This document shows, piece after piece, positions 30,652 to 40,729 of a stretch of DNA of 64,000 nt. A program made the translations under genes and the position numbers. The notes below the pieces were generated by a model that searched no databases, was not told the origin of the DNA, and worked only from the letters and a program-made list of their open reading frames with translations. Source of the DNA: Mycobacterium sp. UM_WGJ. Lineage in GTDB: Bacteria; Actinomycetota; Actinomycetes; Mycobacteriales; Mycobacteriaceae. Every line of letters begins with the position of its first letter. Within the stretch, counting starts at the first letter, position 1. The stretch is taken from assembly GCF_000455125.1 (NCBI RefSeq), contig NZ_AUWR01000047.1, positions 1 through 64,000 of the forward strand. Reading direction: 5' to 3'.

Positions 30652-30855
30652 AGCCCGCGAGAATATGCAGGAAAGCCGCGAAAAGGACGAAAAGCAGGTG
30701 TGGAATCGCCGGTGGGGATGATCGCCGGGCGGAATGACTGCTGAACAGCTGCTAGACTCCCTAACGCGACCGTCCCGGCGTACGCCAGGACAGCAAGTGG
30801 AGTTCCCTCCCACCACTAGCCTGAGGAGCAATCCTTGCGGCTCAGTGGTCCGGTC

Positions 30856-30897
30856 GCAGGCGGTGTAAACCGCCTGCTCTGCGCGCTGCGCAGGCGG
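30856..30897 (+). promoter_or_regulatory. mutually exclusive hairpins in the infC leader
   Basis: GCAGGCGG (30856-30863), CCGCCTGC (30870-30877) and GCAGGCGG (30890-30897) let the middle segment pair with either flank. The first pairing has a 6-nt loop and the second a 12-nt loop. This is the form of an RNA switch placed 36 nt before an intrinsic terminator. What selects the state (L20, IF3 or a leader peptide) cannot be read from sequence. Confidence 0.6.
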
Positions 30898-30932
30898 CTT
30901 GAGGTTGTTCAGGCCGTGATCGGTCGGTATGG

Positions 30933-30957
30933 GCCCTGCTTCGTGCAGGGCTTTTTT
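30933..30957 (+). terminator. intrinsic terminator (attenuator) upstream of infC
   Basis: GCCCTGC (30933-30939), loop TTCGT, GCAGGGC (30945-30951), then six T residues (30952-30957). This is an unusually classical Rho-independent terminator for a mycobacterium. It lies about 80 nt before infC and in the same orientation, so it most likely works as an attenuator rather than ending a gene. Confidence 0.85.
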
Positions 30958-31036
30958 GCTGGTGGGTGGGGTCAGCGCCGCTGCGTCCGGACGAGCACTG
31001 CGGCGGCCGCGACCGAAGACTACCCAAGGAGGTCCC

Positions 31037-31660
<624 letters not shown>

Positions 31661-31687: not shown

Positions 31688-31882
31688 ATGCCCAAGGCGA
31701 AAACCCACAGCGGCGCTTCGAAGCGATTCCGTCGCACCGGAACCGGCAAGATCGTCCGGCAGAAGGCGAACGCCCGCCACCTGCTCGAGCACAAGCCGAG
31801 CACCCGCACCCGTCGTCTGGCCGGCCGCACCGAGGTGGCTGCCGCCGACACCAAGCGCGTCAACGCGATGCTGAACGGCTGA
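31688..31882 (+). CDS. rpmI: 50S ribosomal protein L35
   Basis: A 64-residue, highly basic ribosomal protein beginning [20 protein letters not shown], the diagnostic L35 start, with [20 protein letters not shown] following. A GAGGAA Shine-Dalgarno lies just before the ATG. It sits between infC (27 nt upstream) and rplT, the universal bacterial order. Length is normal for mycobacteria. Confidence 0.97.
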
Positions 31883-31939: not shown

Positions 31940-32329
31940 ATGGCACGCGTGAAGCGCGCAGTCAACGCCCAGAAGAAGCGCCGTACAGTCCTGAAGGCTT
32001 CGAAGGGTTACCGTGGCCAGCGGTCGCGGCTGTACCGCAAGGCCAAAGAGCAGCAGCTGCACTCAATGACCTACGCCTACCGGGACCGTCGTGCCCGCAA
32101 GGGTGAGTTCCGGAAGCTGTGGATCTCCCGCATCAACGCGGCGGCCCGCGCCAACGACATCACCTACAACCGGCTGATCCAGGGCCTCAAGGCCGCCGGT
32201 GTCGAGGTGGACCGCAAGAACCTCGCCGAGATCGCCGTCAGCGACGCGGCTGCATTCACCGCGCTGGTCGAGGTCGCTCGGGCCGCGCTGCCCGAGGATG
32301 TCAACGCGCCTTCCGGCGAGGCTGCCTGA
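31940..32329 (+). CDS. rplT: 50S ribosomal protein L20
   Basis: A 129-residue assembly protein of the large subunit that binds 23S rRNA early. The N-terminal extended helix [20 protein letters not shown] and the globular part [23 protein letters not shown] are canonical. In several bacteria L20 also represses the infC-rpmI-rplT operon by binding its mRNA; the leader hairpins upstream of infC are possible targets, but no L20-like pseudoknot is obvious by eye. The C-terminal 12 residues ([13 protein letters not shown]) are a mycobacterial extension. Confidence 0.97.

Positions 32330-35445: not shown

Positions 35446-40729
<5,284 letters not shown>

What the first reader, a model, noticed from the sequence alone, without database searches (positions are those of the whole stretch)
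30856..31039. infC leader: switchable hairpins, intrinsic terminator and a rare ATC start codon
Three pairing segments allow two exclusive hairpins ahead of a textbook terminator with six T residues, which is rare in mycobacteria. The infC coding sequence then begins at ATC after AAGGAGGT. This suggests control of translation-factor and ribosomal-protein supply at both transcription and initiation.
Basis: partly seen in the sequence, partly recalled or inferred. Interest (0 to 1): 0.7.

Follow-up and report, generated by a model that had tools for sequence, protein, structure and literature searches.

The report
Actinobacterial L20-type infC leader attenuator
The stretch before the gene for translation factor IF3 is a conserved folded RNA that carries what looks like the docking site of ribosomal protein L20 followed by a transcription stop signal, so mycobacteria and their relatives probably throttle this operon by a feedback switch described so far mainly in Bacillus-like bacteria.

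Summary
At 30856-30897 three segments allow two hairpins; a GC hairpin with six T (30931-30957, the only TTTTTT on either strand of the window) follows; infC starts at ATC 31037 after AAGGAGGT. The proposed switch is not conserved: the alternative hairpin shows no covariation, whereas the ordinary fold does (23 of 54 pairs with double changes, 46 mycobacterial-type leaders). Its most conserved part (30795-30849) is AAG-N-[hairpin]-C-[RCC...GGY helix], the layout of the L20-binding junction of the Firmicutes L20 leader. It lies before infC in 179 of 189 class-level loci (0.9% of shuffles). Rfam's L20 leader model matches the same place in other actinobacterial classes (8 of 20 tested, best E 6e-6, all below the curated cut-off) but not in the window. 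The Streptomyces counterpart is filed in Rfam as an sRNA, Scr1601. Best reading: an L20-responsive transcription attenuator, plus the known IF3-controlled non-AUG start. L20 binding and termination were not measured, and no antiterminator was established.

The parts
30753..30758 (+). -10 element TAGACT in TGCTAGACT; start of transcription inferred at about 30765-30767
   Evidence: Seen in the sequence; 26 of the 30 loci have TGCTA[AG]A[CG]T ending 216-333 nt before infC. No start-site data for this genome.
30767..30771 (+). 5' strand of long-range helix P0 (CGACC), pairs with GGTCG 30922-30926
   Evidence: 46 of 46 leaders keep all five pairs unchanged, so no covariation there.
30772..30791 (+). 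hairpin P1
   Evidence: Minimum free energy fold.
30795..30849 (+). L20-type core: AAG 30795-30797, N 30798, P2 hairpin 30799-30810, C 30811, helix P3 30812-30849 (ACC...GGT)
   Evidence: Parsed in 184 of 189 oriented class-level loci, 178 with P3; model R2 hits 30793-30857 at E 1.8e-9; P3 covaries.
30850..30923 (+). multi-branch domain P4 closed by CCGGTC 30850-30855 and GATCGG 30918-30923, holding hairpins A 30856-30877, B 30879-30893 and C 30894-30917
   Evidence: Alternative pairing with 30870-30877 not supported.
30931..30957 (+). intrinsic terminator: hairpin plus six T (30952-30957)
   Evidence: hairpin paired in 99.8% of cells over 46 leaders.
31026..31033 (+). Shine-Dalgarno sequence AAGGAGGT
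   Evidence: Sequence; GGAGG conserved.
31037..31660 (+). infC (IF3), ATC start codon 31037-31039
   Evidence: Pfam; ATC at the aligned place in 177 of 189 loci.
31688..31882 (+). rpmI (ribosomal protein L35)
31940..32329 (+). rplT (ribosomal protein L20), the presumed regulator

Best explanation
[quoted passage not shown] Shown: a conserved, covarying RNA with a two-helix junction laid out like the L20-binding junction of the Firmicutes L20 leader, followed by a conserved terminator hairpin, before the operon that encodes L20. Inferred: when L20 exceeds its 23S rRNA sites it binds P2/P3 on the nascent leader, the terminator is favoured and IF3, L35 and L20 fall together; when L20 is scarce, read-through rises. 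A second, separate control acts on read-through mRNA: IF3 discriminates against its own AUC start codon.
For: Rfam's L20_leader consensus reads AAG-a-[AGAAGC ACCC GCUUCU]-C-g-CCU...CAGGc; [quoted passage not shown] The same layout is found in 179 of 189 class-level infC leaders against 33 of 3780 dinucleotide shuffles (174 of 184 after removing duplicates), and in 21 of 40 loci from the rest of the phylum against 15 of 2000. L223 carries AAGC-AGAAGC-ACCC-GCUUCU-CACC, nearly the Firmicutes letters. Of 20 outgroup loci that I chose from the 26 parsed, RF00558 matches 8 at E<=0.5 (L223 6.4e-6, L218 8.9e-6, L216 1.1e-3), and in all 8 its AAG falls on the AAG parsed independently. Structure covaries in 46 mycobacterial-type leaders (23 of 54 pairs, 0 of 500 shuffles, slid controls lower). 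The whole leader occurs once in the genome (E 3.8e-42, next 0.83). In M. tuberculosis the infC 5' UTR is more abundant than the coding region, 2.6-fold in exponential and 4.9-fold in stationary phase (PMC3207917 Table 8, passages read), as expected of premature termination. infC of Streptomyces starts at ATC, and IF3 represses a non-canonical start (sigR GTC) there (PMC5472188, passages read).
Against: RF00558 does not match the window or 16 leaders of its order; 12 of 20 chosen outgroup loci gave no match either, and all 8 matches are below the gathering score of 58.7. No antiterminator was established: P3's 3' strand is no more complementary to its own terminator arm than to those of other loci (p 0.89; 89 non-mycobacterial loci p 0.21); it beats shuffled arms over all loci (p 0.007) but not in the 89 (p 0.57). 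In the window's prefix transcripts the terminator's 5' arm pairs only in part: at a 3' end of 30940, 30933-30935 with 30926-30928 (0.56-0.59) and 30937-30939 with 30793-30795, at the edge of the core (0.62-0.77); not followed up. Model R2 of the class core reaches the outgroup leaders only weakly (4 of 40, best E 0.036), and its seven weak hits in other classes in whole genomes do not lie at infC. P2 does not vary in the 46 mycobacterial-type leaders. Nothing here measures L20 binding.
Confidence: 0.65

Rival explanations
1. One reading: segments 1, 2 and 3 form two exclusive hairpins (A, or an extended B) that decide on termination.
For: Both pairings are possible in the window, and the extended hairpin is found in near relatives such as L002, L003 and L005.
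Against: No covariation for segment 2 with 3 against strong covariation for segment 1 with 2. Seven of 53 distinct mycobacterial-type leaders lack the stretch with hairpins B and C. Neither hairpin overlaps the terminator.
Confidence: 0.06
2. The leader is an attenuator or translational operator bound by another protein, such as IF3 or L35, and the likeness of P2/P3 to the L20 site is convergence.
For: Operon context fits IF3 and L35 equally. RF00558 does not match 16 leaders of the order.
Against: AAG-N-helix-C-RCC recurs with Firmicutes-like letters in other actinobacterial classes and is hit there by the L20 leader model, AAG on AAG.
Confidence: 0.18
3. Ribosome-mediated attenuation through a short upstream reading frame.
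For: The GTG inside AAGTGGAG is present in nearly all mycobacterial-type leaders as part of the motif, and some have an AGGA-like sequence upstream.
Against: That GTG is GCG wherever the motif is AAGCGGAG, and the two frames read out differ in length (23 codons in L001, 52 in L015). No systematic coding test was run.
Confidence: 0.04
4. The terminated leader is a separate small RNA that acts in trans (the Scr1601 view).
For: The Streptomyces counterpart was described as an sRNA and is in Rfam (RF02830).
Against: All 7 hits over the cut-off sit 84-88 nt before the infC match in the sense direction; in S. ambofaciens the homologue was found in UTRs (PMC8388888, passages read); and it carries the L20-type core.
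Confidence: 0.07

Closest known systems
L20 leader of Firmicutes (Rfam RF00558; B. subtilis infC operon attenuator)
   Same: Same operon, same AAG-N-helix-C-RCC junction, terminator downstream before infC.
   Different: Not matched by the Rfam model in the window; P2 stem mostly GGAG:CUCC with U or C after AAG; extra 5' helix P0/P1 and a multi-branch domain between core and terminator in most mycobacterial-type leaders; no antiterminator established. A survey that included Corynebacteriaceae and Mycobacteriaceae reported the L20 motif in Firmicutes and Thermotogales only (PMC3766115, passages read).
Scr1601 (Rfam RF02830)
   Same: It is the infC leader of the genomes it hits over its cut-off; in the three of them that one search also searched, the P2/P3 core model hits inside it.
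   Different: Filed as an sRNA; its model does not match the window genome at E 0.001.
IF3 autoregulation through a non-canonical start codon (infC ATT in E. coli, ATC in Streptomyces; PMC5472188, passages read)
   Same: ATC start after a strong Shine-Dalgarno sequence.
   Different: Not tested in mycobacteria here.

Membership tests
L20 leader RF00558 | Lies upstream of infC-rpmI-rplT | tested here: met
L20 leader RF00558 | L20-binding junction AAG-N-H1-C-R-CC with H2 | tested here: met
   Window 30795-30849; 179 of 189 loci against 33 of 3780 shuffles. Layout only; binding not tested.
L20 leader RF00558 | Scores above the Rfam gathering cut-off | tested here: not met
   No match at the window; best outgroup 42.9 of 58.7 bits. 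Not filed as a member of this Rfam family.
L20 leader RF00558 | Intrinsic terminator before the start codon | tested here: met
   as sequence, termination not measured.
L20 leader RF00558 | Alternative antiterminator fold | tested here: inconclusive
   P3 strand to terminator arm: no co-evolution seen; partial pairings in prefix transcripts not followed up.
L20 leader RF00558 | L20 binds and lowers read-through | not testable with these tools
   Needs biochemistry.
Scr1601 RF02830 | Model matches the sequence | tested here: not met
   No match in the window genome at E 0.001.
Scr1601 RF02830 | Same place and same core | tested here: met
   In three genomes (G331, G411, G432) the R2 hit lies inside the RF02830 hit, before infC.
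Non-AUG infC start | ATT, ATC or ATA start after a Shine-Dalgarno sequence | tested here: met
   ATC in 177 and ATT in 3 of 189 at the aligned place, 3 GTG, 6 others of which 4 show ATC or ATT three bases on.
uORF attenuator | Conserved upstream reading frame | tested here: inconclusive
   A GTG lies in the conserved motif of mycobacterial-type leaders, but frames read out differ in length.

The most novel reading that the evidence does not exclude
The actinobacterial leader is a two-input device: L20 reads the P2/P3 core, while the P0/P4 multi-branch domain, which is extra to the Firmicutes leader and whose closing strands GGUCCGGUC and GAYCGGUCG are invariant or nearly so in mycobacterial-type leaders, reads a second signal (another ribosomal protein, IF3 or the transcription machinery), and the AUC start adds a third layer.
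Probability: 0.15. Interest if true: 0.75.

Novelty: new variant of a known kind. Interest (0 to 1): 0.5.

Why it matters
It would move L20 feedback from a Firmicutes speciality to a probable feature of much of Actinomycetota, explain the long abundant infC 5' UTR of M. tuberculosis and the Streptomyces sRNA Scr1601 with one mechanism, and give a precise testable site (AAG and RCC at the P2/P3 junction) for how mycobacteria balance ribosome parts.

Tried and rejected
Segment 2:3 switch: rejected for lack of covariation. Antiterminator between P3's 3' strand and the terminator 5' arm: no co-evolution seen; the partial pairings were left open. Shared infA/infC leader, as suggested from M. tuberculosis (PMC3207917, passages read): the infC leader model finds no second convincing copy in this genome (next best E 0.83) and the core pattern occurs once. 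uORF: not supported, but only lightly tested. Mimicry of 23S rRNA: the genome's 23S locus has GCTAAGTGGA where the leader has GCAAGTGGAG, but AAGTGG occurs twice in that locus, so this is no evidence; that this is the L20 site of 23S rRNA is recalled. Reach of the class core model R2 into other classes: weak, and its seven weak hits there in whole genomes are not at infC (places compared), so chance. The terminator census (143 of 178) had no shuffle control.

Rows dropped or chosen: L114 (my script oriented it wrongly) from all counts, where the first motif search gave 180 of 190; seven leaders lacking the B/C stretch (L017, L029, L030, L077, L089, L093, L097) and three duplicates (L071, L073, L095) before A1. 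The 189 class-level loci hold five duplicates. A1 includes four metagenome contigs with other or vaguer labels (L072, L083, L084, L091). A2 holds 49 of 94 non-redundant candidates that already parsed, so its 100% pairing is by selection. The P3 parse favoured helices followed by GGTC. L204 is only 200 nt long.

Full report
What is there. The window holds a mycobacterial infC (IF3) - rpmI (L35) - rplT (L20) cluster followed by a SpoU-type rRNA methyltransferase gene. Before infC, from the start of helix P0 at 30767 to the ATC codon at 31037, lies a leader of about 270 nt. The leader up to the terminator folds far better than shuffles (z -6.5, 0 of 200), and the six-T tract at 30952 is the only TTTTTT on either strand of the window.

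The conserved fold. I collected infC upstream regions from 30 genomes of the genus, 80 genome contigs with titles, 40 genomes of the order and 40 of the class: 190 loci, of which one was misoriented by my script and five are duplicates. On 46 distinct mycobacterial-type leaders (A1; seven shortened leaders left out beforehand) the consensus fold has 54 pairs; 23 show changes on both sides, 96.6% of cells pair, and the covariation score is 0.249 against 0.143 in shuffles and at most 0.094 when partners are slid. The fold is: P0 joining the 5' end to the base of the terminator, P1, P2, P3, a branched domain with hairpins A, B and C, and the terminator. The pairs of P0's CGACC:GGUCG, of P2, and much of the terminator do not vary, so covariation says nothing about them in this set.

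Segments 1 and 2 form hairpin A, which covaries strongly (8 of 9 pairs). Segment 3 is the seam of hairpins B and C. The alternative pairing of segments 2 and 3 does not covary. I read it as a by-product of repeated GC-rich letters.

The L20-type core. The most widely conserved part is AAG-N-[P2]-C-[ACC...GGU]. I parsed it in 184 of 189 loci, 178 with P3. It has the layout of the consensus of the Firmicutes L20 leader printed by Infernal, AAG-a-[AGAAGC ACCC GCUUCU]-C-g-CCU...CAGGc, whose L20 site is the junction of the two helices according to PMC6097659 (sections 3 and 5 read). A search for this layout, with stem and helix letters left free, finds it in 179 of 189 class-level leaders and in 33 of 3780 shuffles; without duplicates 174 of 184, and in 178 of 179 hits it is the same AAG as in the first parse. 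The 64-kb window holds six matches on both strands, one of them at 30795. In 40 loci from the rest of the phylum it is present in 21 against 15 of 2000 shuffles; L223 has AAGC-AGAAGC-ACCC-GCUUCU-CACC. I ran Rfam on 20 of the 26 outgroup loci parsed: the L20 leader model matches 8 at E 0.5 or better (L223 6.4e-6, L218 8.9e-6, L216 1.1e-3, five between 0.0056 and 0.13), each with its AAG on the parsed AAG, all below the curated cut-off; 12 gave no match. In the window and in 16 leaders of its order the model does not ring. So membership of RF00558 as curated fails, while the core feature is met.

Reach and copy number. A model of the mycobacterial-type leader (R1) finds one copy in the genome at E 3.8e-42 with the next at 0.83, and matches 32 of 50 chosen loci outside Mycobacterium at E 0.01 or better (three of the 50 are from other classes and gave none). 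A model of the class core (R2) was run on 149 genomes of the phylum: the 12 genomes of the class in the list all match, each best hit lying upstream of infC (places compared); no genome of the class is among the non-matches shown, 110 of which are not listed. Seven weak hits (E 4.9e-4 to 5.7e-3) in other classes do not lie at infC and look like chance. On the 40 outgroup leaders R2 gives four weak hits (best E 0.036), three of them at the parsed place. The bridge from the class to the other classes thus rests on the layout and on RF00558, not on R2.

Scr1601. Rfam RF02830, described from Streptomyces coelicolor as an sRNA, hits 7 of 198 genomes of the phylum above its cut-off, all seven 84-88 nt upstream of the infC match in the same direction. 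An eighth, weak hit (G328) is not at infC. R2 hits lie inside the RF02830 hits of G331, G411 and G432. PMC8388888 (passages read) found the S. ambofaciens homologue in UTRs and discusses a possible misclassification.

Start codon. Use of ATC by infC is already documented for Streptomyces (PMC5472188, passages read). So the rare start is real but known.

How it probably works. By analogy with B. subtilis, free L20 would bind P2/P3 on the nascent RNA and favour termination. The steps shown here are the conserved structure, the L20-type layout, the conserved terminator hairpin (a hairpin with at least 4 T in the next 8 in 143 of 178 leaders, without a shuffle control) and the operon. The abundance of the M. 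tuberculosis infC 5' UTR over its coding region, 2.6-fold rising to 4.9-fold in stationary phase (PMC3207917, passages read), fits premature termination. Binding, the direction of the response and the coupling to the terminator are inferred. My candidate antiterminator showed no co-evolution. In prefix transcripts the terminator's 5' arm pairs in part with 30926-30928 and with 30793-30795 at the edge of the core; that second contact would link core and terminator, but I did not test it. The lack of an established antiterminator is the main gap.

Prior art. Searches for infC with mycobacterium/attenuation/leader/terminator, infC/L20 leader/actinobacteria, infC/Term-seq, infC/Streptomyces/leader/L20, scr1601, infC/leader/IF3/Actinobacteria, L20/infC operon/mycobacter, termination in mycobacteria, L20 leader/Actinobacteria and infC start codons listed no paper that I recognised as describing an L20-type leader in Actinobacteria. 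PMC3766115 (passages read) states that the L20 motif appears confined to Firmicutes and was also found in Thermotogales, and PMC6097659 calls it narrowly distributed to Firmicutes. PMC4128351 (passages read) names infC only for its promoter; its list of attenuated leaders is in a supplement that I did not see. The library holds open-licence papers only, so key papers (the B. subtilis L20 paper, the Streptomyces sRNA paper and four of the ids tried) were not read.

Noticed in passing
30929-31660 +: An ATG inside the leader, just before the terminator hairpin, is in frame with infC (243-aa frame); automatic annotation could start infC there, although 24 of 53 loci examined (L001-L030 and L071-L093, one of them Gordonia) have an in-frame stop within 40 codons upstream of ATC.
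   Followed up: partly
35446-39558 +: A 1370-aa frame rich in Gly-Gly-X repeats that looks like a PE_PGRS-type or other glycine-rich repeat protein (label recalled).
   Followed up: no
L200 2593-2768 -: A c-di-AMP riboswitch above its Rfam cut-off elsewhere in the window's genome (48 bits against 38).
   Followed up: no
L017, L029, L030, L077, L089, L093, L097: Mycobacterial-type infC leaders that have lost the stretch of hairpins B and C but keep the L20-type core and the terminator hairpin, a natural minimal form.
   Followed up: partly
   Followed up: no
L072: A contig labelled Acidobacteria encodes an IF3 85% identical to the window's and has a mycobacterial-type leader; probably a mis-binned contig.
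   Followed up: no
L168, L170, L178, L180: A group with AAGCGGGGGTTCGCCCTCCACC, a P2 variant with changed stem letters and a different layout between core and infC.
   Followed up: no
30793-30795 and 30937-30939: In a transcript ending at 30940 the terminator's 5' arm is predicted to pair with GCA at the edge of the L20-type core (probability 0.62-0.77).
   Followed up: no
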